This document shows positions 1 to 24,813 of a stretch of DNA of 24,813 nucleotides, in pieces. Below the pieces are notes generated by a model, which was not told the DNA's origin, searched no databases, and saw only the letters and a program-made list of their open reading frames with translations. Source of the DNA: a virus; the IMG/VR virus record IMGVR_UViG_3300034103_002829, positions 1-24,813 of that record; one strand, 5' to 3'. Position 1 is the stretch's first letter; the number at the start of each line of letters is the position of its first letter. Both the position numbers and the translations under genes were made by a program.

Positions 1-700
1 TGGCCTTGAGCAGGTTGTCGCGGGTGAGGTTCTTTTCGGCGGTGCCGGCGGCTTCCTCCGCCGCCAACCCCGAGAACATGTTTCGCCGATGGCGGGCCGA
101 TAGGGCCAGGTCTTCCCCGGCGTTCGGAACCTCGGATTTTCGGGCGAATTCATAGTCACCAGACTCAACCGCTCCGGTGGTTCCCTCCCGGGGGTCGGCA
201 GGTGCTGTTGGGCGTCCTCCCTTCCGCCCTGCTGCCGGCTTGTCAGCTGGAGCTTCCTGGCCTTCCTGGCTTTCGCCTGTCTCCCCAGCCCCTTTGCGGC
301 AGGTGAGATCCGCCGCAATGTGGCCATCCCCGCAGGGTTTGCCGGCCCGGCCGTTGCTGGCCGCCGCGGCCTTGCTGGCCCGGCCTACAGCTGCTGGCTT
401 TTGGCCTTTGCTCTTGCTGGTGCCGCCCAGGGGGATCTCAGTTTGCGCTCCGCCGCCGCCAAGCAGGTCGAGCTGGCCGGGGGCCGATCGGGCACGGGCA
501 TCAAGTCGGGCCTTCAGGGCATCAATGCGATCCCAGGTTCTGTCAATTCGACCGCTGATCTCTGATCGTGGCTTGCGGCGGCCCATCACGATGGCCGCAT
601 GGCGGTTCATCAGTTTCATGTAGGTGACAGTGTCACCCTGATCCCTAGCGTCCTGGGCGGCCAGGCTAAATGTCAATCTTTCGGGGATGGCCAACCTCAT
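1..700 (-). CDS. Partial Cys-module protein, C-terminus outside window
   Basis: I translated this frame by hand; it stays open from an ATG at 700 down to base 1, so at least 233 residues are present and the C-terminus is missing. The ATG overlaps the TGA of the kinase-fold gene upstream (ATGA, 700-697), which implies translational coupling. In order: an N-terminal helical stretch, a linker with APGQLDLLGGGGAQTE, a KPAAVGRA patch, then the Cys/His module GKPCGDGHIAADLTCRKG at about residues 120-137, a Pro/Gly/Ala-rich spacer, and from about residue 185 a more ordered segment, EVPNAGEDLALSARHRRNMF, followed by LTRDNLLK. I do not recognise that last domain with certainty; it has the look of a domain from phage polyvalent proteins. 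The same Cys module and linker occur in the genes at 697-1857, 1861-4701 and 13796-15205. Function unknown. Confidence 0.8.
   Translation of the reverse strand, partial: MRLAIPERLTFSLAAQDARDQGDTVTYMKLMNRHAAIVMGRRKPRSEISGRIDRTWDRIDALKARLDARARSAPGQLDLLGGGGAQTEIPLGGTSKSKGQKPAAVGRASKAAAASNGRAGKPCGDGHIAADLTCRKGAGETGESQEGQEAPADKPAAGRKGGRPTAPADPREGTTGAVESGDYEFARKSEVPNAGEDLALSARHRRNMFSGLAAEEAAGTAEKNLTRDNLLKA
287..343 (-). repeat. Module A copy 1 (GKPCGDGH-type Cys/His module)
   Basis: Encodes a 19-residue segment beginning GKPCGDGHIAADLTCRK. The possible metal ligands are C-x3-H and a second Cys (the usual CH pair is CR here). The DNA is closely similar to the copies at 2431-2487 and 14936-14992. 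Confidence 0.85.
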
Positions 701-1857
701 ACCTGATCCAGCTGTTTGAGCAGCAGATCCACTTTGCGGCGGAAGGCTCGATGGCCACGGGGCCCGTAAACATCATCGCGGCGCTTGTCGGCTTCTTTCC
801 GATCGGCGGCAGTGATCTTGCCGTCCAAACCAACTTCCGCTTGTGCATCGCTAAACGTCCAACCTGGTTTCTCTTTGTTGGCTCTGTGAATGGCATTGGC
901 TTTTATCATTGCCTGTCTGAATTGGTCGCTTGGAATCTGGGGCAGCTCCAGGAAACGCTCGGCCCTGAGATCGGTGATGAAATCTTTTGATGCCCTCTCG
1001 CCGTCGTAAAGACTTTTCCGTGCCTCATCGGCAACTTTGCTGATGGCGTTGCCAGTCCGGCCGCCGTTTTTTTCCATCCCTCGTCGATCTCCGGCCCAGG
1101 TAGAAAGCATGTAAAGCATTGTGGTCTCCTGAAAGAAGTTGCCTTTTGGGCCCCTGCTGCTCATTCCCCAGTCAAGCAGTTTTGGGGTGCCGTCCTCCTG
1201 AATCAGTAAGTTGGCGCCATGGAAATCGTCATGGGTGAGGCCTGCGTCGCCTAGCTTCCTGCTGATTTCTGCCGCACCATAGAGATAGCGCCGCATATTC
1301 TCCGGTTTGCCCAGAATTCGTTGCGCATCTGCGGTTGGGTCATAGCTGTGGTGGTTTTCCTGAAACGGGGTGCCGGGGGTGAACTCATAGGCAAAAGCAA
1401 ACCTCCCATCGGGCAGCTTTTGCATTTCACTGAGCAATTTGGGGGAGACCCCAAGTTCGCCAGCCAGTTTGGCGCTTGCCACTTCGTTTTCAACCATCAG
1501 CCTGCGGGCCTTAATCCGATCTTCGGGCGATGGGTCGGGATGACCGTCGCGGGGGTCGCGGTTGCTGATCCGATCAACCTTCACCACGGCTTTACCGCCG
1601 CCGGCCAGGGGGAAAAGAAATGTGTCGCCGAAGAATCCTTTGCCGATCTGCTTCTCAGGCGGCCGTCCATCTAACAGGATGCCGCCATCGGCCGCCTGGG
1701 TAAGCACTGGGGCACTTTTGGTGCTTTGATTTGGACCTTTTTCCTTGTGACAACGGTAGGTCGAAACGATGAAGCTCTTGCCACACGGCTTACCGCGGGC
1801 TGCATCTACGCGGGCCATGCGCGTTTCAAGCAGCGCCAGCCGGCCGTCGGTTGCCAT
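697..1857 (-). CDS. Kinase-fold protein with Cys module
   Basis: 386 residues. Residues 22-41 hold a divergent module A (GKPCGKSFIVSTYRCHKEKG), so this gene belongs to the same module family as its neighbours. From about residue 72 the protein reads as a protein-kinase/aminoglycoside-phosphotransferase fold: a Gly-rich loop GKGFFGD (72-78), a beta-3 lysine in VVKVD (K93), a helix-C-like glutamate in VENEVASAK, the catalytic loop HDDFHGAN (209-216, with D211 and N216) and a metal-binding DWG (229-231) in place of DFG. All residues needed for phosphotransfer are therefore present. The C-terminal 150 residues are helical and basic, and unrecognised. The ATG at 1857 lies 3 bp after the stop of the 946-residue gene, and its own stop overlaps the next start. 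Substrate unknown; a host-modifying kinase is one possibility, self-contained regulation another. Confidence 0.8.
   Translation of the reverse strand: MATDGRLALLETRMARVDAARGKPCGKSFIVSTYRCHKEKGPNQSTKSAPVLTQAADGGILLDGRPPEKQIGKGFFGDTFLFPLAGGGKAVVKVDRISNRDPRDGHPDPSPEDRIKARRLMVENEVASAKLAGELGVSPKLLSEMQKLPDGRFAFAYEFTPGTPFQENHHSYDPTADAQRILGKPENMRRYLYGAAEISRKLGDAGLTHDDFHGANLLIQEDGTPKLLDWGMSSRGPKGNFFQETTMLYMLSTWAGDRRGMEKNGGRTGNAISKVADEARKSLYDGERASKDFITDLRAERFLELPQIPSDQFRQAMIKANAIHRANKEKPGWTFSDAQAEVGLDGKITAADRKEADKRRDDVYGPRGHRAFRRKVDLLLKQLDQV
1735..1794 (-). repeat. Module A copy 2 (divergent, in kinase-fold gene)
   Basis: Encodes GKPCGKSFIVSTYRCHKEKG. It keeps the GKPCG start and the CHK end, but the middle (SFIVSTYR) differs from the other three copies and the C-x3-H histidine is lost. 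It sits close to the N-terminus with no APGQLDL linker. Confidence 0.75.
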
Positions 1858-1860
1858 TGC

Positions 1861-4701
1861 TTATTTCCCCTTTGGCAGTGCCCGTCGAGTGGCCCCTGGC
1901 ATTTCACCTTGCGAGGGTTCATCCAGGTCCATCGTCCTGCGGCGCAGCTCAAAGATCTTTTCCCCCAGCTTTGCCATCCGCTCGTCAGACGCTTTCATCG
2001 CCTCAGTCAGCTGTCGCATGCGCTGGGACAGCTTCATCGGCGCGCCACTGCCTGCCGGTTGAGTTTGCTGAGCCTGCTGCTGGCGCTGGGCTCGCGCATC
2101 CTGCAGTTGTTGGCCAAACTCTTGGATGTAGGCCTGTTGGGCGGCAGCTTTGGTCATGCCCTTCCATTTGCCTTTGCGCTCCAGGCTCCATTCGGATTCG
2201 AACAGCTGGTTGGCCAGCATCGACATCTGCCGAACGTCTGCCGCCTTCATCTGCTGGATTGCCTGGCGCATGGCATCGGCCAGCGGGGTTTTGCTGGCCG
2301 TTGGGCTTGCTGGTGTTTCCTGGCGAGGGGGGATCTTGAACAACGGCGCGGCGTTCGGCTTGGCATCAACAAACCGGCTGCCGTCATCACTTTCTCCGGC
2401 GTAGACCATGGCCCCATTGCCGGCCCCTGCACCTCCTTTGTGGCAGGTGAGGGCCGCAGAGATGTGACCATCCCCGCAGGGCTTGCCGGCTTTGCTGTTG
2501 CCGGTAGCTGCGGCCTTGGCGGCCCGGCCCACTGCCGGCGGCTTGCGTCCACCCTGGCTGGTGGTGGTGCCACGCTGCATGCCCAGATCGAGTTGGGCGC
2601 CACCGGCCATCAAGGGCAGCTGGCCCGGGGTGGTTCGGGCGCGAGCATCCAGGCGGATGATCCGGCTGATGAGGCTGTCGAACATGCTGGCCGTGGGTGC
2701 CTCGTTGGCGAGGTTCTTCGGTTTGCGCAAGCCGGCCCGTTCCAGCTCCAGCTGCATGGCGGCGATCACCTGCTCCTCCAGCTCCTTCTTCACTTGGGCG
2801 GCCGGGTCGCCCTTCATCATGCGGTTGGCGGCGCTGTTGAGGGCGGTGGCGATCGGGCCGGCCTTGTCCTTCAGCTCCTTGAACACCCGGAGCACCTGAT
2901 CGGCCTCGGCGGCAACCCCGGCGCTTTCCCGTTGGTTGATCTTGTTGCCGGCCTTCTGCTGGAGGGCCTCGGCCGCGCGGCTTTTGCTGACGGTGGCAAA
3001 GAGCGATTTTTCCCGGGCCAGCTTGCGCCGCAGGTTGTTGGCGAGCTCCGCCCGGGCCAGGCCGTTGTCGACCGTTTCTTGCCCCCCGAAGATGTCCAGG
3101 GCCCCCTGCTGGCTGGCCTCGCTGACGGCCAGGTTTTCGACGTACTCCGCCAGGGTGCCATCGGAGATGTTTTTGCGCTGCCGCAACAGCTTGCCGATTT
3201 CGCCCTGTTTGGCCTTGCTCAGCCCTGAATTGCCGATGATCGCGCCACGGCTGATTGAAAGCTCGCCATTGATGACGGCGCGGAACATCGACTCGGGCAG
3301 CCGGGCCAGCCCCAGGCCCTGGGCGGCCTTGCCGGATTGGAGGGGGAGGCCGGCGCGTTCAACGGCCGCCTGATCGGTGATGCCGGAATCCCGGAAGAAT
3401 TTCGCCGCATCGACGCTGCTGCCCTGGCCCTGGGCGATGTTCTGCATGGCCCCGATCGCACGGGCCTCGTTGGCATTGGCGGCCTTGAGGTACCGGATCG
3501 TCACGGACTCTGCCGCCATCCGTTTGGCCAATGCGAGGCGGTTGTGCCCGTTCACGACATAGGTCTTGCCATCGGCCGGGTCTTGCCACACCGATATCAC
3601 CCCGGCGAGGTTGTCGTCCCATTTTTTGATGCCGGCAAGGGAGCCAACCTCTCCGCTGGCAGATGAGTGGAGCTTGAACTGGAAGCGCTTGGGATCCACC
3701 TCGATGGAGTCCGGCGCCACGACCGCCACGGTCCCTGCCAGGCCCCCCTGGCCGGGCCCCCCCAGGCCGGGGCCGGGCGCCGCGGCCGTTGCTGCGGGCA
3801 CCTTGCCACTGCGGACCATCTGGGCAACCGCCGGATCACGCAGCATTGCCCGCAACCGCTCCACTTGCCGGCCCTCCTGCAGGCCTTTGGCCTTTTGATT
3901 GCGCCCTGCCTGCACGGCCGCCTGCACCTTCCCGGCATTTGGGTCGCCCTGGCTTACTAGCTCCTGCAGCCGCCGCAACCGCTCCTTGCCGATGGCGCTG
4001 GCGGCCCTGATGACGCACTCCTTGTTGACTGAGATGCAGGTGGCCCCGCAGCCGTAGCCGGTGGTGCACCGCCGCTTGCTGGCGCTCGTGCCTTTGGCTC
4101 GGGTGTCACGGAAATCGAGGCGGTGGCCCCGGGCCGCCAGAAATCCTTCAGACCTCGCCGCCCAGGTTGCATCGGTCTCGACATCCCAGGCTGGGCGGAA
4201 CCGCACGGCTTCGCCATCGACGCGAAACTGGTAAACCAGCCCAGCTGCCGCCACTCGCCCGGTGAGGCTTTGGCCCTGGGGGGCGTGCTGCCGGTCCCAG
4301 CTCAAAACGGCCGCCCCAGGCAGCGATGCGGCCAGCACCGCCGTCAGTGGCGCCGTGATCGGATCAATGGCGGCAGTCGCACCGTCCAGCCGCGCCATGC
4401 GGGTTTCGATCCGCCTGAATCCAGGATGCCGCCTGGGCACCGTTTTGCTGGCTGTGCCCCGCTTGGCGTCAGCACGTCCAGCTGAATTGTCACTAACGGG
4501 CGAATAAGTAACGTTATCGCCTTGAATTCTGTAGTTGTAGACCAATTGGCCAGCACGAAAGGTGCCAGTAGTTTCACCAGTGGCGACAGATGTATTGAGA
4601 GTCAGCAGATGCACGCTGTCGTGAATCAGCTCGTCAATGATTGATTTGACGAGCGACGCTGTTTCCTGCCTGACATCCACTGGTGTTTCTCTTGGTGTCA
4701 A
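1861..4701 (-). CDS. 946-residue ParB-like multi-module protein
   Basis: Module order: residues 32-68 carry module C (LLTLNTSVATGETTGTFRAG, then QLVYNYRIQGDNVTYSP); 145-170 look like a degenerate second copy (SLTGRVAAAGLVYQFRVDGE); 212-229 carry module B (CTTGYGCGATCISVNKEC). About 360-450 form a ParB/sulfiredoxin-like domain with VWQDPADGKTYVVNGHNRLA (371-390), where NGHNRL replaces the classical ParB GxRR. Then come a helical region (450-680), the APGQL-like linker (683 on), module A (739-757), a GSRFVD segment and Gln-rich coiled coil to the end. ParB-like domains of this type are known as DNA- or nucleotide-acting enzymes in phage polyvalent proteins. The first in-frame start is TTG at 4701, with AAGG about 6 nt upstream; GTG at residue 8 is an alternative. 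The C-terminal third looks like a separate module-A protein fused on. Probably first large gene of a three-gene block. Confidence 0.8.
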   Translation of the reverse strand: MTPRETPVDVRQETASLVKSIIDELIHDSVHLLTLNTSVATGETTGTFRAGQLVYNYRIQGDNVTYSPVSDNSAGRADAKRGTASKTVPRRHPGFRRIETRMARLDGATAAIDPITAPLTAVLAASLPGAAVLSWDRQHAPQGQSLTGRVAAAGLVYQFRVDGEAVRFRPAWDVETDATWAARSEGFLAARGHRLDFRDTRAKGTSASKRRCTTGYGCGATCISVNKECVIRAASAIGKERLRRLQELVSQGDPNAGKVQAAVQAGRNQKAKGLQEGRQVERLRAMLRDPAVAQMVRSGKVPAATAAAPGPGLGGPGQGGLAGTVAVVAPDSIEVDPKRFQFKLHSSASGEVGSLAGIKKWDDNLAGVISVWQDPADGKTYVVNGHNRLALAKRMAAESVTIRYLKAANANEARAIGAMQNIAQGQGSSVDAAKFFRDSGITDQAAVERAGLPLQSGKAAQGLGLARLPESMFRAVINGELSISRGAIIGNSGLSKAKQGEIGKLLRQRKNISDGTLAEYVENLAVSEASQQGALDIFGGQETVDNGLARAELANNLRRKLAREKSLFATVSKSRAAEALQQKAGNKINQRESAGVAAEADQVLRVFKELKDKAGPIATALNSAANRMMKGDPAAQVKKELEEQVIAAMQLELERAGLRKPKNLANEAPTASMFDSLISRIIRLDARARTTPGQLPLMAGGAQLDLGMQRGTTTSQGGRKPPAVGRAAKAAATGNSKAGKPCGDGHISAALTCHKGGAGAGNGAMVYAGESDDGSRFVDAKPNAAPLFKIPPRQETPASPTASKTPLADAMRQAIQQMKAADVRQMSMLANQLFESEWSLERKGKWKGMTKAAAQQAYIQEFGQQLQDARAQRQQQAQQTQPAGSGAPMKLSQRMRQLTEAMKASDERMAKLGEKIFELRRRTMDLDEPSQGEMPGATRRALPKGK
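2431..2487 (-). repeat. Module A copy 3
   Basis: Encodes GKPCGDGHISAALTCHKGG. Bases 2461-2487 are identical to 14966-14992 (27 of 27), and 2437-2452 are identical to 14942-14957 (16 of 16), which is more nucleotide conservation than the surrounding linker shows. Confidence 0.85.
4015..4068 (-). repeat. Module B copy 1 (four-Cys module in ParB-like protein)
   Basis: Encodes CTTGYGCGATCISVNKEC, with Cys spacing C-x5-C-x3-C-x6-C. The spacing is identical to the copy in the zeta-like protein at 24316-24369. Confidence 0.85.
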
Positions 4702-7848: not shown

Positions 7849-8680
7849 GTTGGCACTTTTCGCAGGCCATGGCGGCGGCATTCTCGGAGGCCTCCTGTTG
7901 GGACGGCGAACCGTCTGCGCCGTCGAAATTGACGCCGCAGCCAGACAGCGACTCATGGCCCGCCAAGACGACGGCACGCTGCAACCCTTCCCCATCTGGG
8001 ACGACGTTTCCACCTTTGACGGCAAGCCCTGGGCTGGCCTTGTGGATGTCATCTCTGGCGGCTTCCCGTGCCAAGACATCAGCATTGCCGGAAAGGGGGC
8101 AGGGATCACCGGCGAACGATCAGGTCTCTGGCGTGAATTTGCTCGGATCATTTGCGAGGTTCGACCGCGCTACGTCCTCGTGGAAAACTCCCCAGCTCTC
8201 GTTGCTCGGGGGCTCGGAACCGTTCTCGGAGACTTGGCCGAGATGGGGTTTGATGCGCGATGGGGTGTGTTTGGAGCAGATGAAGCCGCCCTCGCGACTC
8301 ATTGCGGAGAGATCCCGCTCATCCACAACCGCGATCGACTCTGGATCGTGGGTTTCCGAAAGGGCACCGACCCCGACGGTTTGCGGGAACTACAACCGGA
8401 AAGGATCCAGTCCGACCAGTGGAGACGGGCTGGCGACGTGGGTAAAACAAAGACTGCCGACGCCCACGGTCAACGACAGCAAGAACGTCGGTGGGCCGTC
8501 ACAGTTGAGGCGGGACACCATTCCGCTGAACGCACTGGTTGGTGGTCCGCTGAACCCGACGTGGGTCGAGTGGCTCATGGGGTGGCCGATCGGGTGGACC
8601 GACTTAGAGGGCTTGGAAACGGGCAGGTTCCAACAATGGAAGTACTTGCATGGGAGACGTTGACCACGGGCGAGCCCTAA
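7841..8680 (+). CDS. DNA (cytosine-5) methyltransferase
   Basis: 279 residues. The C5-methyltransferase motifs appear in order: I FAGHGGGILG (7-16, SAM binding), IV GGFPCQDIS (73-81, catalytic Cys78 as the nucleophile), VI VLVENSPAL (112-120), VIII HNRDRLWIVGF (162-172) and X RLRGLGNGQVP (254-264). The stretch between VIII and X, which holds target recognition, is short (about 80 residues), so the protein is compact. It transfers a methyl group from SAM to cytosine in double-stranded DNA. No restriction endonuclease is next to it, so it is best read as a solitary phage methylase that protects the element from host restriction. The specificity cannot be read by eye. The start ATG overlaps the end of the preceding gene. 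Confidence 0.9.
   Translation: MNELALFAGHGGGILGGLLLGRRTVCAVEIDAAARQRLMARQDDGTLQPFPIWDDVSTFDGKPWAGLVDVISGGFPCQDISIAGKGAGITGERSGLWREFARIICEVRPRYVLVENSPALVARGLGTVLGDLAEMGFDARWGVFGADEAALATHCGEIPLIHNRDRLWIVGFRKGTDPDGLRELQPERIQSDQWRRAGDVGKTKTADAHGQRQQERRWAVTVEAGHHSAERTGWWSAEPDVGRVAHGVADRVDRLRGLGNGQVPTMEVLAWETLTTGEP
7845..8663 (+). CDS. Overlapping second frame of the methyltransferase locus
   Basis: A 272-residue frame lies wholly inside the methyltransferase gene, offset by one base, with its own ATG (7845) overlapping the preceding stop as ATGA. It is not random: it contains SSWKTPQLSLLGGSEPFSET then WPRWGLMRDG (111-140), PTPTVCGNYNRKG, TSGDGLATWV, LPTPTVNDSK and LNPTWVEWLMGWPIGWTDLE (236-255). 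I recall these segments from annotated phage proteins beginning MSW(H/R)(F/Y)SQ. Either both frames are translated, or the similarity to known proteins is a passive image of the conserved methyltransferase frame. No enzymatic motif is recognised in this frame. Confidence 0.5.
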   Translation: MSWHFSQAMAAAFSEASCWDGEPSAPSKLTPQPDSDSWPAKTTARCNPSPSGTTFPPLTASPGLALWMSSLAASRAKTSALPERGQGSPANDQVSGVNLLGSFARFDRATSSWKTPQLSLLGGSEPFSETWPRWGLMRDGVCLEQMKPPSRLIAERSRSSTTAIDSGSWVSERAPTPTVCGNYNRKGSSPTSGDGLATWVKQRLPTPTVNDSKNVGGPSQLRRDTIPLNALVGGPLNPTWVEWLMGWPIGWTDLEGLETGRFQQWKYLHGRR

Positions 8681-8702: not shown

Positions 8703-10133
8703 TCAAACCGATCTCAAAATCGCCTCATAGGCCGCCCTGGCTTGCTGGTCCAGCCATCCTCGCCGCGGGCACCACACCGGGTCACCAGCTGGCCAATCGC
8801 GCGCGGCCTGGTTCAGGGGGTCATCTGGGCTCAAGGCTTTCCTTGCCACGCTTTGCGGCAGGCCTTTGCGCTCCATCAGGGGGTAGTCAGCAGACTTGCC
8901 CCGCATGTCCCCGGGCCCACCGACCGGCCGGGGCACCGCCTCGGCGCCGGCGGCCGCCCGGAAATAGGCCATGGTGGCCGCCGCATGGGCCTGGAACTCG
9001 GCCTCCCAGGTCTGCTCCGGCGATTTCGCCATGCTGTTCTGGATCACCAGCGATTCCAAGGTGATCGGGCTCTCGCCGCAGCGGCAGTTCGGATGGATCG
9101 GGGTTTTCACCCCACCAATCCAGTAGATGCAGCCGGATCGGGGCGCACAGAACTCGCAGGTGCGGTCATCAAGCGTCGCCAGGTACTGCACAAAGCCAAC
9201 CCGCAGCCGGCGGTAGATCCGCTCTTGGGCCTCGCCAGATGCCATCAAGGTTTCGGTGCGGGCGATCGTTTCCGCCCGGTTTTTGAAGGCCTCGTTGATG
9301 GTTGGGATCCTCTCCCGCAGCTTGGCCTTCAGCGCCCGGGGATCGGGGCCCTGGGCCATCTGGCGCGCCGTCTCAAACGACACCGACTCCCCCCATTCAG
9401 CCCACCACTTGGCGTAGTAACTCTTTGACGCCCTGACGTGCTCATCGGAGGCCGCATCACGCTCTTTGGCGTAGTTCTCGGACAGGCTCTTGAAATCGCG
9501 TTCCGCCGCGATCACCGCACCGCTGAGATCGAAGAGCCGGCTCAGCCGTTGCCCACCCTGGTACCCCCGATCTGGCGCCAATGGCATGTCGATCGGTGCG
9601 GGGCCCTGCTGGCCGGGCAACAGCGGCGGGCCGTCGCCCGGCCCCTGGCCCTGGCCCTGGCCTGGCAGCTGCTCGATCTGCCCCTCTGGGGAGAGCGCCG
9701 CCAGGGAGGGCTCGAGTTCTGCCCCGGTGATCTGGAGGGCATATTCGCTGCCCAGTCCCTGGGCCCGATCGAACAGGGCTTTCAGTTCGCTCTCCAGCCG
9801 CTCCATCCGTTGGGGGGAGAGCTGCATCGAGTCGATGATCTGGCGCAGATCTTGGAGCAGCTGCCCCTGCAGGATCAGCTGGGCTTGATTCTTCAAAACC
9901 GGATCGATGGATACCTGCCCCTCGGGGGTGGATCCCAAAAACGCCCCTGGGGTGGTCTTTGGGTCATAGGCGGGTTGGGCGGCGATGCCATCGAGCTGCG
10001 CAAAAATGCGTGCGACCGTTTCCCGCAGGGCCCCCTCGAAGACGCGACCGATCCGCCCGATCGCTTCATCCTCCAGGCCCCGCAGTTCGTCGCTTAGCCG
10101 CTGCTGGAGCTCCAGCCGACGGTCAATGCTCAT
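8703..10133 (-). CDS. Head morphogenesis protein, MuF/SPP1 gp7 type
   Basis: 476 residues. The C-terminal third has the MuF signature: RAETIARTET (286-295), YLATLDDRTCEFCAPRSGC (with C326 and C329) and PIHPNCRC (345-352). Proteins of this family are minor head proteins, present in few copies near the portal and ejected with DNA in some phages. The N-terminal half is helical, with a Gly/Gln low-complexity linker (157-178). Beyond the MuF motif lie about 120 residues (LMERKGLPQSVARKAL, then PGDPVW-like text) with no recognised toxin fold, though MuF proteins often carry a C-terminal effector. Its ATG overlaps the portal stop (ATGA at 10133-10130), the usual portal-MuF pairing. It is convergent with the methyltransferase. 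Confidence 0.85.
   Translation of the reverse strand: MSIDRRLELQQRLSDELRGLEDEAIGRIGRVFEGALRETVARIFAQLDGIAAQPAYDPKTTPGAFLGSTPEGQVSIDPVLKNQAQLILQGQLLQDLRQIIDSMQLSPQRMERLESELKALFDRAQGLGSEYALQITGAELEPSLAALSPEGQIEQLPGQGQGQGPGDGPPLLPGQQGPAPIDMPLAPDRGYQGGQRLSRLFDLSGAVIAAERDFKSLSENYAKERDAASDEHVRASKSYYAKWWAEWGESVSFETARQMAQGPDPRALKAKLRERIPTINEAFKNRAETIARTETLMASGEAQERIYRRLRVGFVQYLATLDDRTCEFCAPRSGCIYWIGGVKTPIHPNCRCGESPITLESLVIQNSMAKSPEQTWEAEFQAHAAATMAYFRAAAGAEAVPRPVGGPGDMRGKSADYPLMERKGLPQSVARKALSPDDPLNQAARDWPAGDPVWCPRRGWLDQQARAAYEAILRSV
9645..9662 (-). repeat. CTGGCC hexamer x3 in the MuF gene
   Basis: Three tandem CTGGCC units on the plus strand, encoding Gly-Gln repeats in the MuF linker. Matches the four-unit run in the portal gene at 10679-10702. 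Confidence 0.85.
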
Positions 10134-12115
10134 GGCTCATAGCTGTCGCATCGGACCCCCATCGCCAGCAAGTCCAGGCCATCGAGGCGGCGCACCCGGG
10201 CACCCGGGCCGGCGGCGGCCACCACCATGGCCTGGTCCTTCACTCCCAACACGGCGGTCCATTGACCGGCCGGGCTCAGCACCTCCCATAGCCCGGTGGG
10301 GTCAGGGCCCACTGCCGCTTCCAGAGCCAGGGCCTGCCCGTAGGGTCCGACCAGGGTGGCGGTGCCATCGATGCGGACGTCAACTGGCACGCCGGCCACC
10401 ACCCGCCGACCGGTCACCCGGCTGCCGTCCGCCCGTACCCCGGGCCGCCGGCCGCGGCCCTTGCGGCCCTTGCCCTGCGCAATTGCCCTGGCGATCGCCT
10501 TGACGTGGGCCTCGGCGGCCGCCGCTTGCTGGCCCTCCAGCTGGTCATCGGCCTGCTGCTGGCCGTCGACGGCGCCGTCGTTGCAGGTGGCGGGCTTCCC
10601 CCTGGCGGTGGCGGCGTCGCAGGGGCTGCAGCAACCGTCGTCGCGTTCGTCCCCGCTGTCCCCACGGGGCACTTGCTGCTGGCCCTGGCCCTGGCCCTGG
10701 CCAATGGCCTCGCCGGGCAGAGTGGCCAGGTCACCACCAAAGGTGGGTGGTGGCAGGTTTTGAGGATCCTGTTTGATCGCGCCATTCTTCTCGCGGTCCA
10801 GCAGGGTGGTTTCGATCGAGAACTTGGCCCCGCCAAAACGCGCCACGGCCACTTCGTTGGGCTGCAACACACCTGCGTTGAGGTACTGGCTGTCGGCCGA
10901 GGCCACCTTGCCCCGTAGCTCGGCCTCTTCCAGGTCGGAAAGGGTGATGGTGCTGTGAAAATCAATCTGCCAATCCTCTGGCAGTTTCATTGCTGCCTTG
11001 TTGGTGGAGCAAGCGGCCAGCGTTTCGTAGAACTGGCGCAACTGCCGATCAATGTGGTCTTCCTGGATCATGTGCACCTCTTGTGCAAAATCCGCCTTCT
11101 CTGAATGGCCAGTGGCCCCCAACCCCGATGGGGAGCTGCCCCAGAGCTTGGTGTGGGGGATCCGGCTTGCCCCCTGAACTTCGTCCTTGAGTTTTTCGAT
11201 GATCGACTCGACCCCTGCGGCCGAACGGGTCAGAAATGAGGCCTCTTCACCATCAGCGTCGAGGGCGATGCCGCCGATCACCGAACGCATCATCGCGTTC
11301 AAAGCCAGCCGATTAGTGATCAGGTCGCCATTGCCTCGCTCCACCATGCCTTTTAAACCCTTGACTTTCTGCACATATAGGCTGAAGTCGTTGAGGATGT
11401 TGGCGGCTGATGCTTGGCCTGTTTCGTAGCGCTTGAATACACTCCAGACGGACTGCAATACGGATACACCCCACCATCTAAAGTGACTTTTGTAACTGTA
11501 AGGAACCGAGTCTCCTTCAAAACGCAGCAGCCTGGAGCGATGGATAGGCACATGCAGTAATTGATCTTTTATGCCAATACGGCGCAAATCTTCATCTCGA
11601 TTGATTTGCATTTGATAAAGCTCAGGTTCGCCTACACCGCTCCAGCCCGCTGCCGGCCAAATCCGTTGGCAATCCATGGCATGCAGCCCCTTGATGGCCC
11701 GTAGCCTCTTGAGGTTGACAGGCTCATTGATGGGAGTGTTGTCATCAAGGATCATGATTATCGCCGCGCCGCCATGAAGGCGAGACTGCTTCATGGCTTC
11801 CTTGACATGAGTGCGGATCCCCATGTCTTCGCCAGTCGCAACCAGCCGATCAAACCGCTTCTTCTCAGCATCGGTGGTTTCCGGGCCCAGGGTCAGGGCC
11901 CAGCCCGCCCTGGTGCACTCCTGCGGGATGGTGTCGACGATGCGCCGGCAGAGCCAGTTGTTTATGTATAAAGCGTCCAGGTCAGCGGGTTGCAGTATTT
12001 CCGGCGCTGCAACACCGGTGTATCGCTCCTTGTCCTGACTGGTGCCCATTTTGGTCAGGGTGTTGACCAATACCCCGTCAAACCGTTTCTCAAAAGCGAT
12101 TTCGTCGGTATCCAA
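10130..12115 (-). CDS. Portal protein, DUF1073/HI1409 type
   Basis: 661 residues. The first 430 residues follow the DUF1073 portal pattern: INNWLCRRIVDTIPQECTRA near the N-terminus, SRLHGGAAIIMILDDNTPIN, VPIHRSRLLRFEGDSVPYSY, WWGVSVLQSVWSVFKRYETG and HTKLWGSSPSGLGATGHSE. Portals form the dodecameric ring through which DNA enters and leaves the head and that docks the terminase. After residue 430 comes a low-complexity Gly/Gln-rich segment (GQGQGQGQ), a Cys-containing patch (CSPCDAATARGKPATCNDG) and a basic, Gly-rich tail with a possible beta domain (GTATLVGPYGQAL, VLSPAGQWTAVLG). The Pfam family name now refers to anti-CBASS Acb1, but no paired HxT motifs of that enzyme are visible. The start ATG at 12115 is divergent from the sigma gene. 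Confidence 0.85.
   Translation of the reverse strand: MDTDEIAFEKRFDGVLVNTLTKMGTSQDKERYTGVAAPEILQPADLDALYINNWLCRRIVDTIPQECTRAGWALTLGPETTDAEKKRFDRLVATGEDMGIRTHVKEAMKQSRLHGGAAIIMILDDNTPINEPVNLKRLRAIKGLHAMDCQRIWPAAGWSGVGEPELYQMQINRDEDLRRIGIKDQLLHVPIHRSRLLRFEGDSVPYSYKSHFRWWGVSVLQSVWSVFKRYETGQASAANILNDFSLYVQKVKGLKGMVERGNGDLITNRLALNAMMRSVIGGIALDADGEEASFLTRSAAGVESIIEKLKDEVQGASRIPHTKLWGSSPSGLGATGHSEKADFAQEVHMIQEDHIDRQLRQFYETLAACSTNKAAMKLPEDWQIDFHSTITLSDLEEAELRGKVASADSQYLNAGVLQPNEVAVARFGGAKFSIETTLLDREKNGAIKQDPQNLPPPTFGGDLATLPGEAIGQGQGQGQQQVPRGDSGDERDDGCCSPCDAATARGKPATCNDGAVDGQQQADDQLEGQQAAAAEAHVKAIARAIAQGKGRKGRGRRPGVRADGSRVTGRRVVAGVPVDVRIDGTATLVGPYGQALALEAAVGPDPTGLWEVLSPAGQWTAVLGVKDQAMVVAAAGPGARVRRLDGLDLLAMGVRCDSYEP
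10679..10702 (-). repeat. CTGGCC hexamer x4 in the portal gene
   Basis: Four perfect tandem CTGGCC units on the plus strand encode GQGQGQGQ in the low-complexity region after the portal core. Unit length is a multiple of three, so slippage would change length without frameshift. Confidence 0.85.
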
Positions 12116-12281
12116 AATCCCTGCTCTTTTACGAAAGGCGCTCGATCAGGTTAATGCCGCCCGTCCTTTCTCCTGAATGCCAGGGCGCTTCATCGCCAAT
12201 GCTGGATGCAATGGACGGTAGGCTTGCGGCGACCATCGGCGATGCGGGGCCATGGCCAGCAGGTCAGGCGAGAGATCATCA

Positions 12282-13148
12282 ATGGTCGGCGCCATGCTGG
12301 CCGATTTCGGCCGGTATCCGATCCCAAACAAGACCGAGCAGCTGCTCAGGGGCCAGCAGGTTCGAGCGTGGCTGGATTGGCCTGGCGGCCCTGAGAAAGC
12401 TCCGGGGGCAATACGGCGAGCAGGCAAGCGGGCACGAGACCGATTGGTGACAGGAAACATGCGGATGTGCGTCACCGTCGCCAAAAAGTATTGCCGGATG
12501 GGCCTCCCCCTTGAGGATCTGATCCAGGAGGGGGCAATCGGCTTGCAGCGCGGGGTCGAGATGTTCGATCCAACCAAGGGTTATACCCTGGGTACTTATG
12601 CTTATTGGTGGGTGCGACAGGCGATGTATCGCGCCCTGGCGGAAACTGCGGATACGATTCGCATTCCGACCAATGTGCTGGAGGTGTTGTTCAGGGTCGA
12701 GCGCCATATCGCATCCAGTCCAAATCGGCTTACGGATGCTGAGTTGCTGGAGATTTCAGGGCTAAAAAGTATGGAACAGTTGGAACGCATTCGGATAGGG
12801 GCTCGCGCCAAAAAATGCGGCAGCACATCAGTCCTGTTGCCTGATGAGAAGCACTGCCTAGAAGAGGTCTTGCCATGCCCCAAAAGCCGCGTCGATATTG
12901 AGGAAGATCGGCTGGAAAATGCTCTTCAGCTTGAGAGGCTGGCGGCAATGCTCCCGTTTCTATCAGATGAAGAAACCGAAATAATTGAGCTGTTGTATCT
13001 AAATGAATTGCCTAAAACAGAAATCGCCAGGATGCTTGATACAACTGCTGATCGGGTTTCCAACATCGTCAACAAGGCAATGGGCAAGCTGCGTCGCCTG
13101 GCCATGATCGACGATGGTGAGCATGTCATTCAGGAATCATTATTTTAG
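12282..13148 (+). CDS. Sigma-70 family RNA polymerase sigma factor
   Basis: 288 residues from ATG 12282, with GAGAG 8 nt upstream; ATG 12252 is an in-frame alternative. Region 1.2 is visible ([20 protein letters not shown], then [20 protein letters not shown]). Region 2 follows: [20 protein letters not shown] (2.1-2.2), then [20 protein letters not shown] and ADTIRIPTN (2.3-2.4, DNA melting and -10 recognition). Region 3 is shortened and unusual ([18 protein letters not shown]). Region 4 ([20 protein letters not shown], then [20 protein letters not shown]) keeps the helix-turn-helix but lacks the usual RERVRQ. It would direct host RNA polymerase to element promoters. The diverged region 4.2 suggests altered -35 preference. 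Its TAG overlaps the HNH gene's stop on the other strand. Confidence 0.85.
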
Positions 13149-13795: not shown

Positions 13796-15205
13796 CTAGG
13801 CCACAGAAGCAAGCCGAAGCAGTCTGTTTTCGATTGCTTCAATGCTGTCACCACGGGATTTTTGCTCTTCATCAGCAGCTTTGAGGATGCGCTTGGCCGC
13901 GTAGACGCTGTTCTCGGTGTTCATGCGCTGCCACGCGCTGTTGCTGGGGCTCCAGCGCCAGCCAGATCTTTTCAGCTGGCTGCGGATGGCATCTGATGGC
14001 TTGCCATTGTGAAACCTGATCCGAACCCGGTTGTTGTCGAAGTCACGCTCGATTTCACCGCTTTGGAAGTCCGCTGCTGCTGCACCGGCTTTTGCTGAGG
14101 CGGCTTTGGCGGTTGTTGCCAGCCGTTGTTGCCGGGCCGTCTCCTCCAGGTTCCAAACCGAATGCCTGGGGGTGAACAATGGCTTGCGCAGCGTGTCCTG
14201 TTGGTCTCTTAGGTGGTCGAGGAGGTCACGCACTAGCTCCACCTGGCCGTTTTTGGCCAAGCGGCTTATTTTGCCCGAAATCGAGGCCGCCGCTGACGAC
14301 CGGTCGTAAAACGTGCGCCCCGATTCCGCTTCCCTTGTCCAGGTGATGCTTCGATCAATGCTGCGGGTGACCGTGGCCAGCTCCTGGGCGTGGGCGGCTT
14401 CTGGAGTGCGGCCACGCTGCAGTTTTCGGTAGATGCTGCTTTGGGCCCTGGTGGTGAAATCCTCCAGCTCGCGCCGTCTCACATCTTCAGCACGGTTTGC
14501 CTTCTCCATGCGCCGCACCGGGAAATTGCTGGGCCCGGCGATCATTGGGCTCACAAGCCGGCTTTTTGCGCTTAGCCAGGCGGTATAGCGCTTCTTGTAG
14601 CCGTCCTTGTATGCCTTCATCTCGGCGTCCAAGATCGCTCTTTGCTCCGGTGACTCAGCTAAGTCCTGCAGTCGTGCGTAGAGGCTGTTGAGGTGTGCGG
14701 CGTAGTTCTCCTGGTGTGATCGGGCTCGTTTTTCCGGGTCAAACGAGGTGCCTCTGTGGGCATTCAGGGCAAGCTCGTAGCTAAGGTCTGCTGGGCTGGC
14801 GTAGCTGGTGCCAGTTGCGCTGCCTGGAGAGGCCTCGGCGCTGGTGTTGCCCTGAGCCGCCTTCCCTGCTGTTGGCGTGGCTGGAGCGGAGGCTGGCCCC
14901 TTGGGTGGTGTTTGGGCGTCTGGTGTCGCTGCACTGCCTGATTTGTGGCAGGTGAGGCTTGCGCTGATGTGACCATCCCCGCAGGGCTTGCCATTTCGTG
15001 CGGTTGCGCCGCGGGCCGCACGGCCCACTGCCGGTGGCTTCTGGCTGTTCCGGCCGCTGGTGGAAGTCTGGCCAGGCATCGTCAGGTCAGTTTGGGCGCC
15101 ACCGCCGAACAGATCCAGTTGGCCAGGCGCTCGTGCCTTGCGGGCACCTAGGCGGGCATCGATGCGGGCCAGGCGGGCCTCAATTGCATCAAAGACCCGT
15201 TGCAT
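13796..15205 (-). CDS. 469-residue Cys-module protein with phage-type C-terminal domain
   Basis: N-terminal helix (MQRVFDAIEARLARIDARLG), linker APGQLDLFGGGAQTDLTMPG, KPPAVGRA, then module A (GKPCGDGHISASLTCHKSG, 72-90) and a Pro/Ala-rich spacer. From about residue 150 come helical stretches, with a segment SRLVSPMIAGPSNFPVRRME that resembles a domain seen in phage polyvalent proteins. Residues 388-443 form a small alpha/beta domain (RVRIRFHNGKPSDAIRSQLK, then RSGWRWSPSNSAWQR), also frequent in phage and plasmid large proteins. No catalytic triad is obvious. Start ATG 15205 has a possible promoter at 15234-15261. Likely first gene of the block with the 107-residue and HNH genes. Same module family as the genes at 1-4701. 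Confidence 0.75.
   Translation of the reverse strand: MQRVFDAIEARLARIDARLGARKARAPGQLDLFGGGAQTDLTMPGQTSTSGRNSQKPPAVGRAARGATARNGKPCGDGHISASLTCHKSGSAATPDAQTPPKGPASAPATPTAGKAAQGNTSAEASPGSATGTSYASPADLSYELALNAHRGTSFDPEKRARSHQENYAAHLNSLYARLQDLAESPEQRAILDAEMKAYKDGYKKRYTAWLSAKSRLVSPMIAGPSNFPVRRMEKANRAEDVRRRELEDFTTRAQSSIYRKLQRGRTPEAAHAQELATVTRSIDRSITWTREAESGRTFYDRSSAAASISGKISRLAKNGQVELVRDLLDHLRDQQDTLRKPLFTPRHSVWNLEETARQQRLATTAKAASAKAGAAAADFQSGEIERDFDNNRVRIRFHNGKPSDAIRSQLKRSGWRWSPSNSAWQRMNTENSVYAAKRILKAADEEQKSRGDSIEAIENRLLRLASVA
14936..14992 (-). repeat. Module A copy 4
   Basis: Encodes GKPCGDGHISASLTCHKSG; near-identical DNA to copy 3 (14966-14992 equals 2461-2487). About 12.5 kb from that copy. Confidence 0.85.
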
Positions 15206-21540: not shown

Positions 21541-22181
21541 TCATTCGCAGTAAGCCCCCCCATTCTTCAGTTGTTCATGGTGGTAGCGGCCAGCTTGGTC
21601 GCGATCCGCCGGGATTGTGACCCGGAAATATCCAGGGCGCAGCTCGTCGCTGCACTCAATGCCTGGAAATCCAGGCGCATCTTGCGTTTCGTGCTGCCTA
21701 GGTTCGGAGCACTCCATCAGGGTGCCGCTGGTTGTCCGATACTCCCAGGTCATGCACCCGGGTTCGTCGCCGTGGGTCTCCATCCGCAGGCCGCTGCCGC
21801 AGCAACCCGCCAGCGGGTTGAACTGACGGCTGGCTTCAAAAGCCGCTAGAACGGCCCAGAAGGCCTTTTGTTCTTGTCGGTATGGATGATTCCTCCCAAA
21901 TATTCCAACCAATTCTTTGTAATACTCGGCCTGACCCAGAAAGGTGAGGAACTCCAGGCGGCCCAGAAGGCCTTTTGTTCTTGTCGGTATGGATGATTCC
22001 TCCCAAATATTCCAACCAATTCTTTGTAATACTCGGCCTGACCCAGAAAGGTGAGGAACTCCAGGCGGGTCAGAAAATACGGTTCGCCAGGGGTGTGGCA
22101 GTTGACGGCTGGAGCGGTGGCGATGGCGGGGCGTTTCATGGCGGTGTCTGAATCGGGGTGTCTTGTGGCCTGGGCGGGCAC
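21541..22181 (-). pseudogene. Gene disrupted by a 107-bp tandem duplication
   Basis: Reading from 22181 (GTG; or ATG 22139) the protein runs PYFLTRLEFLTFLGQAEYYK, then ELVGIFGRNHPYRQEQKAFW, and shifts frame into a nonsense tail ending at 21846. A second frame (21541-21912) resumes with VGIFGRNHPYRQEQKAFWAV and continues through LAAFEASRQFNPLAGCCGSG to a normal end (QLKNGGAYCE). The reason is a perfect duplication of 107 bp (21852-22068). Removing one copy restores one continuous frame of 178 codons (177 residues from 22181). The intact product is unrecognised. The duplication may be real (phase-variable or dead gene) or a sequence/assembly artefact. Confidence 0.8.
21852..22068. repeat. Tandem direct duplication, period 107 bp
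   Basis: Bases 21852-21958 are repeated perfectly at 21959-22065, and the match continues 3 bases to 22068. The base before the two copies differs (A versus G). 107 is not a multiple of three, so it frameshifts the gene. Confidence 0.95.
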
Positions 22182-22563: not shown

Positions 22564-22947
22564 TCAATCCTGATCTTCTGCTGCCTCGCTGTCACCCTTC
22601 GGCAGGAGGCGAATCGATTTTCGCCCGAGCTTGATTTCGAACTCGTCGCCGGGCTTCAGATCGAGCAAGGCCGTGTAGGCCTTGCCAATCATGAGGTTGC
22701 CATTGAACTGAACCTTGGTCTCGAAGCTGAGCTTGCGGCCTGGGGATTTGCCGCCAGCGGCCTTGCCACCACCGCCACCAAAGTCCACACCCTTGGCATT
22801 GAGGAGGGCCTCGTAGAACGCCGTGAAGTTGAGGCGCTCGGAACCATCGGCCTTGGTGGAGACGTAGCCACAAGCCCGAACAAGATCGGACTTGCTGACA
22901 TCCCCCATCTCCTTGACCTTGGCCATCAAATCAGAACCGACAAGCAT
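22564..22947 (-). CDS. cyAbrB-type transcription regulator
   Basis: 127 residues from ATG 22947. The cyanobacterial AbrB pattern is clear: GDVSKSDLVRACGYVSTKAD, then RLNFTAFYEALLNAKGVDFG, a Gly-rich hinge (GGGGGKAAGGKSPG), and the C-terminal swapped-hairpin DNA-binding part KLSFETKVQFNGNLMIGKAY, PGDEFEIKLGRKSIRLLP. cyAbrB proteins are dimeric or tetrameric, broad, nucleoid-associated regulators of carbon/nitrogen metabolism in cyanobacteria. Two copies are normal in the host chromosome; one next to phage genes suggests the element carries its own or sits beside a host gene. It is followed by a clear terminator. An inverted repeat lies upstream at 23008-23021. An earlier in-frame ATG at 22980 is not preferred. 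Confidence 0.9.
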   Translation of the reverse strand: MLVGSDLMAKVKEMGDVSKSDLVRACGYVSTKADGSERLNFTAFYEALLNAKGVDFGGGGGKAAGGKSPGRKLSFETKVQFNGNLMIGKAYTALLDLKPGDEFEIKLGRKSIRLLPKGDSEAAEDQD

Positions 22948-23007
22948 CTGGATGCAGTGCAATGACCATTTAAGTATCACTTGGTGCTATAGCCCTATGC
23001 AAGCAAA

Positions 23008-23062: not shown

Positions 23063-23230
23063 TCAGCCGAGGTGGGAATCAGGGTCCCAATCAGGCATCC
23101 CTTCCGACTCCAGTTCGTATTTGGCCTGCTCTTCTGCCGTCAGCGCTGGCAGCGTTGCATCAAGTTGCTCGTCTGCGGCGGTGTCGCCTCCAATTGATGC
23201 GCTGGGATCCTGTCTGGTGCTGCTGGTCAT
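23063..23230 (-). CDS. 55-residue acidic protein linked to the zeta-like gene (hand-found)
   Basis: ATG 23230 overlaps the zeta-like stop (ATGA at 23230-23227). The protein reads MTSSTRQDPSASIGGDTAAD, then EQLDATLPALTAEEQAKYEL and ESEGMPDWDPDSHLG. About 13 acidic and 2 basic residues, so strongly acidic and likely partly unfolded. Downstream position and coupling to a zeta-type kinase make an inhibitor or antitoxin role conceivable, although the classical epsilon antitoxin is encoded upstream and is helical. Unsupported beyond context. Confidence 0.6.
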   Translation of the reverse strand: MTSSTRQDPSASIGGDTAADEQLDATLPALTAEEQAKYELESEGMPDWDPDSHLG

Positions 23231-24780
23231 CGCGGCGCTTTGCCTCCAAAAAACTGCTGTTTGTAGGCGCGTGATTTTGATTGGTCCTCTTCAACGATAC
23301 GCCCGTTCTCCCACCGTTGGATGGTGCTCATTGATCGGGCCCCCAGACGATCGGGCTCGGCATCGGCCAGCACCGCCGAATCCGCTAAGCGGGCCACCTG
23401 CTCGAAGTTGTGCGGGATCACCTCATAGGCCTGGCGGATGAAATCCAAAGGAACAAAGCGCCCTGATCGATGGGCGCGCTTTTCAGCGGCCATCACGCCC
23501 TCCGCAACGGAGATGTGGGGCATGATCACCCGGACCTCATAGCCCCGTTCCTTGAGGCGTTGCACCATCGCCAGATACTTCTTGCCGTTTTTGCCCGTTC
23601 CATCGAGCATGACGTTGTAGCCGCCCTCAATTGCCCGCTCCTTGATCTTCTCGGCGATGGCGGTGCTGGATTCCTCGTGGGCTCTCGCCGCGGCCAGCTT
23701 GTCGGAATTGGCGACTGCCAAGGCAAACTCGGGCAGCCGATCCTTCATTTCATCAGGATCGACCTTCACATAGCCGGTGGTGTCAGCCATCACCTTGGCC
23801 AGGAGGCTTGATTTGCCCGAAGCGGGCCCCCCCATCATGACGATGGCCACCTTGCGGCCGCCGGCCCCCTTGCCGGCGGTTGTGCCCTTGGCGAGGGCCT
23901 CCTGGATCAGCTGCTCGCGGTAGAGCTTGCGCCCGGGGCTGTCGGGCATTGCAGGGAAACCGGTGCGGCCGTCTTCGAGGCCCGGGGTGCCCTTCTGCCA
24001 GCGGCGGTGGTTGGGGTTTTCGCCTGAGGCCTCGTGCAATTCACGGTCCACTTCTCGGATGCGGCGGCCCAGGGTGCTGATTGCTCGCATCGCCTCTGGG
24101 GTGGGGAATTCCATGAGGGTGCCGTTGCCGTCGTCGCGGCGGCGGGCCAACAGGTCACGGCCTTCGGCCAGGAGGGCATCACGCCGCTGGAGCAGCTGGG
24201 CCGGGCGATCATTGGGCCCATGGAGCTTGCGCCCCAACCTGGTGACGGCCTGGCCCTGGCCGCCGGTGACGAGGGCCCCCAGGCGGCCCAGGGCTTGGGC
24301 ATTGCCGGTGAGTTCGCACCGTTTGCTGCGGGAGATGCAGGTGCTGCCGCAGCGATAGCCGGTGGCGCAGCGGCGCTGCCCGGGCCTGGGGCTGTCCATC
24401 CGCGCAGCTGTAACTAGAAACGCCTGCAACCGCGCTGGGCTCCAACCCCTGATGGCGTCCTGCCGCTCCGGCGCCGAACCCCGGGGCCCCGCCAGCTCGG
24501 CGCCGATGGGCTGATAGCTGACCCGCTCCCCCTTGATCTGATAGCCGAAGACCATTTGGCCACTGCGAAAGCGACCGGTGACCGCACCGGTGGCCCTGGA
24601 GCTGTTGAGGGAGAGCAGCTGGATTGGTTGGCGGAATTGGCGCTCGAGTTCTGCCGTGACGATCGAAGCGATTTCACCTCGAACCCGATCGGCACCATCC
24701 TTGCGACCAAAGAGGGGCAGCGACTGGTCGTAATCGGTGGCCCCGAAGAGTCCCGTTTGGCTTTGGCGCTTGCCGGCCAT
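23227..24780 (-). CDS. Zeta-toxin-like kinase with Cys modules
   Basis: 517 residues from ATG 24780; the frame stays open to the window edge (11 more codons), so the true start may lie outside. Residues 54-91 carry module C (LLSLNSSRATGAVTGRFRSG, then QMVFGYQIKGERVSYQP) and 138-155 module B (CATGYRCGSTCISRSKRC). A helical middle precedes a P-loop kinase: Walker A GGPASGKS (317-324), VDPDEMKDRLPE (340-351, zeta-type substrate-binding acid), AHEESS (367-372), NVMLDGTGKN (389-398) and conserved Arg further on. Zeta toxins phosphorylate UDP-N-acetylglucosamine and block wall synthesis. No upstream epsilon-type antitoxin is visible within the window. Shares two modules with the ParB-like protein, placing it in the same family of module proteins. 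Confidence 0.85.
   Translation of the reverse strand: MAGKRQSQTGLFGATDYDQSLPLFGRKDGADRVRGEIASIVTAELERQFRQPIQLLSLNSSRATGAVTGRFRSGQMVFGYQIKGERVSYQPIGAELAGPRGSAPERQDAIRGWSPARLQAFLVTAARMDSPRPGQRRCATGYRCGSTCISRSKRCELTGNAQALGRLGALVTGGQGQAVTRLGRKLHGPNDRPAQLLQRRDALLAEGRDLLARRRDDGNGTLMEFPTPEAMRAISTLGRRIREVDRELHEASGENPNHRRWQKGTPGLEDGRTGFPAMPDSPGRKLYREQLIQEALAKGTTAGKGAGGRKVAIVMMGGPASGKSSLLAKVMADTTGYVKVDPDEMKDRLPEFALAVANSDKLAAARAHEESSTAIAEKIKERAIEGGYNVMLDGTGKNGKKYLAMVQRLKERGYEVRVIMPHISVAEGVMAAEKRAHRSGRFVPLDFIRQAYEVIPHNFEQVARLADSAVLADAEPDRLGARSMSTIQRWENGRIVEEDQSKSRAYKQQFFGGKAPR
24316..24369 (-). repeat. Module B copy 2 (four-Cys module in zeta-like protein)
   Basis: Encodes CATGYRCGSTCISRSKRC with the same C-x5-C-x3-C-x6-C spacing as the ParB-like protein. 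11 of 18 residues identical between the copies. Confidence 0.85.
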
Positions 24781-24813
24781 GGCCGCCCCCAGGCGGCGGC
24801 GTTGGAGGTCCCG

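What the first reader, a model, noticed from the sequence alone, without database searches (positions are those of the whole stretch)
23063..24780. Zeta-type kinase without a visible epsilon partner but with a coupled tiny acidic gene
The zeta-like active site residues appear intact, yet no classical antitoxin gene is upstream within the window. A 55-residue, highly acidic protein starts on the zeta stop codon. The toxin could be inactive until delivered, inhibited by its own N-terminal modules, or neutralised by the acidic protein.
Basis: partly seen in the sequence, partly recalled or inferred. Interest (0 to 1): 0.6.

Follow-up and report, generated by a model that had tools for sequence, protein, structure and literature searches.

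The report
Cyanophage zeta kinase with small partner
A virus of freshwater cyanobacteria carries a long protein ending in a bacterial-toxin-like kinase; related kinases in other phages often come with a small, mostly acidic partner encoded (or fused) right after them, and one has been found inside virus particles, so this looks like a phage-delivered weapon with its own safety catch rather than a classical toxin-antitoxin pair.

Summary
The zeta-family kinase and the 55-aa acidic ORF coupled to it (ATGA overlap) are real features of the sequence. But the window ends inside the kinase gene. Two near-identical longer phage contigs show a 732-751-aa protein, and no epsilon gene upstream or anywhere in them. 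The N-terminus is a modular "tag" shared with four other proteins of the same phage (protein-kinase-like, primase-like, ParB-like and zincin proteins), so this is a polyvalent-type phage protein, not an epsilon/zeta module. Sister phages lack the kinase and the small gene.

New here: zeta kinases of other phages are often followed by a small acidic ORF (7/17, against 2/77 background ORFs, p=6e-5). Nine loci share a small-protein family that Pfam, PHROGs and the PDB do not contain; it is separate and downstream, convergent, or fused to the kinase C-terminus. Several of these zeta genes sit beside portal or MuF genes. In cyanophage P-SS2 the zeta domain is part of a MuF protein that published mass spectrometry found abundant in virions.

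The window's own 55-aa protein fits by position, but its homology to that family is not significant and its coding evidence is weak. Most likely: a delivered effector with a dedicated neutraliser or chaperone. The substrate is unknown.

The parts
23227..24813 (-). C-terminal 528 codons of a 732-751-aa polyvalent-type protein; the N-terminal ~204 (L004) to ~223 (L005) residues lie beyond the window edge
   Evidence: open frame to the window end; full ORF in L004 and L005
23380..23865 (-). zeta-family P-loop kinase domain (Walker A GGPASGKSS, VDPDEMK, HEES, DGTGKN, GRFVP)
   Evidence: PF06414 E=5e-27 over residues 318-477; family alignment
24190..24765 (-). linker with paired QTGLF/QSLPLF motifs, module B, and Cys motif RCATGYRCGSTC; module B recurs in the 946-aa protein of the same phage
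   Evidence: tblastn hits to 1861-4701; similar arrangement in L162
23063..23230 (-). 55-aa acidic ORF in a 4-nt ATGA overlap with the kinase stop; candidate partner protein
   Evidence: 96-98% identical in G001 and G002; no database family
22564..22980 (-). cyAbrB-like regulator downstream; not detected in the G005/G007 sequence searched, like the kinase and the small ORF
   Evidence: PF14250 E=4e-26; comparison with sister contigs
1861..4701 (-). 946-aa polyvalent protein with module B, Cys motif, ParB-like region and the shared tag
   Evidence: the ParB reading is by motif
697..1857 (-). 386-aa protein: shared N-terminal tag plus a protein-kinase/APH-like domain
   Evidence: APH E=7e-6; tag alignment
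13796..15205 (-). 469-aa protein: shared N-terminal tag plus a primase-like region
   Evidence: phrog_19458 E=4e-20; tag alignment
1..700 (-). start of a further tag-bearing protein (778 aa in G001, 1543 aa in G002) with an HExxH-type metallopeptidase motif (SHEWGH)
   Evidence: zincin reading is by motif
8703..12115 (-). MuF-like head protein (8703-10133) and portal (10130-12115) of the same phage
   Evidence: PF04233 4e-8, PF06381 7e-64

Best explanation
The gene encodes a polyvalent-type phage effector: an N-terminal tag and adaptor modules, shared with other enzymes of the same phage, followed by a zeta-family small-molecule kinase. I think it is packaged with, or deployed together with, the phage genome and phosphorylates a host metabolite early in infection. 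The 55-aa ORF translated from the overlapping ATGA is its dedicated partner, keeping the kinase silent (antitoxin or chaperone-like) in the producing cell. Shown: kinase family, full length, tag sharing, absence of epsilon, recurrence of small acidic partners next to phage zeta kinases, and virion presence of the zeta-bearing protein of P-SS2. Inferred: delivery in this phage, toxicity, substrate, and neutralisation by the 55-aa protein.
For: Kinase domain. AF2 of the homologous L191 kinase plus tail (pTM 0.76) matches zeta 1gvn, PezT and AvrRxo1 (E 1e-10 to 7e-10). Tag shared by five proteins of the phage, with the CHK-type Cys box in further viral contigs on protein-kinase-like, LRAT-like and other proteins. 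Zeta relatives sit beside portal/MuF: L254 portal-MuF-zeta-small ORF; L258 portal/ART-zeta; L257, L265, L199, L259. P-SS2 gp030 has MuF 1.7e-8 and zeta 1e-21, and its product averages 96.5 peptides in purified virions (PMC2784084 Table 2). Acidic downstream ORF after 7/17 phage zeta genes against 2/77 other ORFs, p=5.5e-5. Partner family L197, L207, L260, L188, L190, L194, L195, L191 (fused), L270 (fused): each beats 1000/1000 shuffles in leave-one-out; L195 was found blind, E=9e-5 among 19,881 ORFs, lying convergent with zeta. Precedents: MuF toxins are followed by small ORFs in 89.4% (PMC5576092); AvrRxo1 has its antitoxin gene downstream (PMC4938570); zeta-like kinases in polyvalent proteins and fused to MuF (PMC5512222).
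Against: The window's 55-aa protein is not a significant member of the partner family (70/1000 and 115/2000 shuffles score as well), and its coding evidence is modest (P=0.09). The gene lies about 11 kb from the portal, with the opposite-strand terminase genes between, not in the head cluster. No virion data exist for this phage. UNAG-binding residues are only partly kept. Two of the nine partner-family members (L188, L194) are not acidic. The fused tails fit a packaging or localisation role as well as inhibition.
Confidence: 0.5

Rival explanations
1. The small protein, separate or fused, is a packaging or localisation peptide or an assembly chaperone that travels with the kinase, not an inhibitor.
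For: It is fused to the kinase C-terminus in L191, L193 and L270; several of the kinases lie in head-gene contexts.
Against: In L195 it is encoded separately and convergently, and small downstream ORFs after MuF toxins are read as immunity genes (PMC5576092). It was found only beside zeta kinases in the loci searched.
Confidence: 0.2
2. The kinase is not a toxin but a housekeeping or counter-defence P-loop kinase of the phage (nucleotide, polynucleotide or sugar-nucleotide kinase), and the 55-aa ORF is incidental.
For: Sequence similarity to Pnkp1 (E 0.008) and a PHROG polynucleotide kinase family (2e-9); UNAG-binding residues only 2/5 identical; the 55-aa ORF has weak coding support.
Against: The best matches are zeta and PezT; acidic small ORFs are enriched at this position across phages.
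Confidence: 0.22
3. It is a stand-alone epsilon/zeta-type addiction module whose antitoxin is unrecognised.
For: Zeta domain; plasmid relatives carry an ~85-aa gene directly upstream.
Against: No epsilon family match in three phage records; the upstream neighbour is a 260-aa ORF with a 102-bp gap; long shared N-terminal modules.
Confidence: 0.05

Closest known systems
Polyvalent proteins of phages and conjugative elements (Iyer et al. 2017, PMC5512222)
   Same: Multidomain proteins of terminase-portal phages with exchangeable effector domains; zeta-like kinases are named among them, fused to MuF in phages.
   Different: That paper reports a paucity in cyanobacteria; this cyanophage carries at least five tag-sharing proteins. 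The zeta gene here is not fused to MuF and lies outside the head cluster. I found no mention of immunity proteins there (term search).
MuF polymorphic toxins of temperate phages (Jamet et al. 2017, PMC5576092)
   Same: Phage-encoded effector followed by a small ORF.
   Different: No MuF domain in this polypeptide; the word zeta does not occur in the main text of that paper.
AvrRxo1-Arc1 (zeta-like kinase with downstream antitoxin, PMC4938570)
   Same: Zeta fold; small antitoxin gene downstream of the kinase.
   Different: A secreted bacterial effector, not phage; the profile of the phage partner family finds no PDB chain, hence not Arc1.
Epsilon/zeta and PezAT type II toxin-antitoxin systems
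   Same: Kinase family, Walker A and catalytic Asp.
   Different: No epsilon family gene, long N-terminal modules, substrate residues only partly kept.
Cyanophage P-SS2 gp030
   Same: A zeta kinase in a cyanophage.
   Different: There the zeta domain is inside a 1499-aa MuF protein with a later ART-like region, detected in virions.

Membership tests
Zeta_toxin kinase superfamily (PF06414) | significant profile match with Walker A and catalytic Asp | tested here: met
   E=5e-27; K46, D67 and K70 equivalents kept
Epsilon/zeta type II TA | epsilon antitoxin gene adjacent, normally upstream | tested here: not met
   upstream ORF is 260 aa; PF08998 absent in G000, G001, G002
Epsilon/zeta type II TA | UNAG-binding residues E100, T118, R120, T121, T128 | tested here: inconclusive
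   2 of 5 identical, R120 is K (alignment; residue list from PMC4938570)
Epsilon/zeta type II TA | kinase is toxic and is neutralised by its partner | not testable with these tools
   needs expression experiments
Polyvalent proteins | several fused domains, shared and exchangeable between proteins of one element | tested here: met
   tag in five proteins; module B also in the 946-aa protein and, in G001, in a 324-aa protein
Polyvalent proteins | element is a terminase-portal phage | tested here: met
   TerL, portal, MuF
Polyvalent proteins | encoded among virion genes or present in the virion | tested here: inconclusive
   window gene is ~11 kb from the portal; several relatives sit beside the portal; P-SS2 gp030 is in virions
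MuF polymorphic toxins | MuF domain N-terminal to the toxin domain | tested here: not met
   Pfam scan of the 732-aa protein gives only Zeta_toxin and AAA_33
MuF polymorphic toxins | small ORF immediately downstream | tested here: met
   55-aa ORF, ATGA overlap
Phage zeta-partner small-protein family (described here) | profile match better than shuffled sequence | tested here: not met
   window protein: 70/1000 and 115/2000 shuffles score as well; nine others 0/1000
AvrRxo1-Arc1 | Arc1-like downstream protein | tested here: not met
   partner-family profile finds no PDB chain at E<=5; the 55-aa protein itself was not compared with Arc1

The most novel reading that the evidence does not exclude
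Tailed phages of many hosts carry a class of virion-delivered zeta kinases, each with its own immunity or chaperone protein from an undescribed small, mostly acidic family (downstream, convergent or fused), unrelated to epsilon, PezA or Arc1; the window's 55-aa protein is a fast-evolving member or analogue in a cyanophage.
Probability: 0.38. Interest if true: 0.7.

Novelty: new variant of a known kind. Interest (0 to 1): 0.52.

Why it matters
If true, it links a well-studied toxin kinase family to phage delivery and gives it a partner family that Pfam, PHROGs and the PDB do not contain and that can be tested at once with co-expression. Re-read with today's domain models, published virion proteomics of P-SS2 already place a zeta kinase domain inside a cyanophage particle. 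It also shows a rich set of polyvalent-type proteins in a cyanophage, where earlier work saw few.

Tried and rejected
Epsilon upstream: looked for in two longer relatives and by profile, none. The kinase start at 24780: rejected. Genome-contig scan for the whole protein: no relative. Search of 390 cyanobacterial genomes: only distant kinases, among them ORFs whose N-termini look like signal peptides to me. PF06414 family search over cyanobacteria: rings in nearly every genome, uninformative. 55-aa protein in phage records: no match at E<=1. Diversity-generating retroelement in the sister phages: two 116-nt copies, but only 9 of 33 mismatches fall on A, so rejected; the gene is an FGE-sulfatase-domain protein. 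AF2 of the full 732-aa protein: kinase confident, module B not (pTM 0.41), so module B stays unidentified. Alignments with misplaced rows (A7, A8) were discarded. Neither the co-fold of kinase and partner nor PAE or coordinates were available; in the natural fusion L191 the partner's first helix is confident (pLDDT ~90 at residues 271-280) after a disordered linker, but where it docks is unknown.

Full report
What is in the sequence. On the - strand, 23227-24813 is open to the window edge. Its C-terminal part matches Zeta_toxin (PF06414, E=5e-27) and the zeta toxin of 1gvn (E=1e-8). The phosphotransfer residues (K46, D67, K70 equivalents) are kept. Of the five UNAG-contacting residues listed in PMC4938570 only E100 and T118 are identical, so the substrate cannot be assumed. 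A 55-codon ORF begins in an ATGA overlap with the zeta stop, with GGAGG upstream; it has 13 acidic and 2 basic residues, pI 4.05.

The gene is longer than the window shows. The window is a 24.8-kb virus record. Two near-identical longer records, G001 (69 kb) and G002 (57 kb), carry the whole gene, 732 and 751 aa. Upstream lies a 260-aa ORF after a 102-bp gap. It has no Pfam match; I read it as ParB-like from its motifs only. The epsilon family is absent from all three records. The statement that no antitoxin is upstream is therefore true, but the window itself could not show it.

Selection. Among the three phages, 22 of 32 changes in the kinase ORF are synonymous (8.5 expected, none of 20,000 simulations as high). 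In the 55-aa ORF 4 of 7 are (1.9 expected, P=0.09) (that script stopped with an error after these two results).

Modular N-terminus. The full protein starts with a short coiled segment, a QxxLF-type motif and a GKPCGDGHIS...CHK box. The same tag occurs in a protein-kinase-like protein (697-1857), a primase-like protein (13796-15205), a ParB-like 946-aa protein (1861-4701) and a large zincin-motif protein (from 700 downward), sometimes repeatedly. The CHK-type box recurs in further viral contigs on other enzymes. Module B in front of the kinase recurs in the 946-aa protein and, in G001, in a 324-aa protein whose end reads like a J-domain (the J-domain is my reading). Sister phages G005 and G007 keep the N-terminal part (95% identity over residues 1-232, the frame matching to about residue 257) and then run into unrelated DNA. 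The kinase was not found in either record; the 55-aa and cyAbrB genes were not found in G005 and in the part of G007 searched. The kinase is thus an accessory cargo on a modular frame, as described for polyvalent proteins (PMC5512222).

Recurrent small partners. A profile search brought in zeta kinases of phages with 26-51% identity. Among 17 such loci (not all independent: L191 and L193 are 96% identical), 7 have an acidic ORF of 45-100 codons starting within -30 to +60 nt of the kinase stop, against 2 of 77 other large ORFs of the same loci (Fisher p=5.5e-5). Seven small proteins (L197, L207, L260, L188, L190, L194, L195) and the fused tails of L191 and L270 form one family, with a helix followed by a P-K-x-F-x-x-G-E-G-I-like motif; each beats all 1000 shuffles in leave-one-out tests. 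Not all are acidic: L188 and L194 have net charge +1. L195 was found by the profile without being sought, as a gene converging on the kinase from the other strand. No member has a convincing Pfam or PHROGs match, and the profile finds no PDB chain. The window's 55-aa protein scores above most but not all shuffles (70/1000; 115/2000), so it is a positional counterpart and not a proven homologue. Its end, DSHLG, resembles the ends of the L253 and L187 proteins (DDHLG), which are themselves not significant.

Delivery. Zeta genes of several related phages sit beside portal or MuF genes: L254 has portal, MuF, zeta, small ORF in a row; in L258 zeta follows a portal-ART protein; in L257, L265, L199 and L259 a portal lies downstream, directly or one gene away. 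In L253 and L256 the neighbour scanned gave no match. In cyanophage P-SS2 one 1499-aa protein has a MuF domain and a zeta domain and, by PHROG matches and sequence, an ART-like region. Table 2 of PMC2784084 gives this ORF 030 an average of 96.5 peptides in purified particles, so a zeta-bearing protein is physically in a cyanophage virion. In the window's phage the gene lies about 11 kb from the portal, so delivery is inferred from the shared tag and from relatives.

Structure. AF2 of a natural kinase-plus-tail fusion (L191 fragment) gives a confident kinase (pTM 0.76). Foldseek matches are zeta, PezT and AvrRxo1. AF2 of the 732-aa protein: kinase confident, N-terminal modules mostly not.

Mechanism and likelihood. 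I favour a phage effector carrying a zeta-type kinase with a dedicated partner that keeps it quiet in the producing cell (0.5). Alternatives are a packaging or chaperone role for the partner (0.2), and a non-toxic metabolic kinase with an incidental ORF (0.22). A classical epsilon/zeta module is unlikely (0.05).

Novelty. Zeta kinases in polyvalent and MuF proteins, small ORFs after MuF toxins, and a downstream antitoxin for a zeta-like kinase are each known. New, as far as the libraries searched show, are the partner family across phages, its fused and convergent forms, the link to virion proteomics, and this cyanophage repertoire. I file it as a new variant of a known kind.

Noticed in passing
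window 13796-15205, 1861-4701, 1-700, 24700-24765; L004 7356-7600: Tag-bearing proteins are enriched for QxxL[FLM] motifs such as QLDLF and QMDLF (8 seen, 2.3 expected in shuffles, P=0.004), which resemble sliding-clamp-binding motifs; a second hexapeptide-like motif (QSLPLF, QAELPL) often follows.
   Followed up: partly
window 22564-22980: Phage-encoded cyAbrB-like regulator, up to 81% identical to freshwater Synechococcus/Cyanobium genomes; a hint at the host and possible interference with host carbon/nitrogen regulation.
   Followed up: partly
L016 17417-18391: In G001 the 946-aa protein is split: module B plus Cys motif is followed by what reads as a J-domain (HPD motif), which looks like cassette exchange behind module B.
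   Followed up: no
L129 8866-9837: In the sister phage an FGE-sulfatase-domain gene lies, on the opposite strand, where the kinase would be, with two tandem 116-nt copies of its 3' end (72% identical); mismatches are not adenine-biased, so not a diversity-generating retroelement.
   Followed up: yes
window 12252-13148: Sigma-70-type factor between portal and primase-like gene, on the + strand.
   Followed up: no
window 7841-8680: C-5 cytosine DNA methyltransferase (PF00145, E=1e-26).
   Followed up: no
window about 21836-22181: Imperfect tandem duplication of ~100 nt, read in two frames (AEYYKELVGIFGRNHPYRQEQKAFWA and its shifted copy).
   Followed up: no
L219, L220: Zeta relatives on plasmids have an ~85-aa hypothetical gene directly upstream, i.e. 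the opposite order from the phage loci.
   Followed up: no
L139, L141, L142: Closest chromosomal cyanobacterial zeta kinases appear to have N-terminal signal peptides (by eye); in L139 I saw no small same-strand ORF beside the kinase. Possible exported kinases.
   Followed up: no
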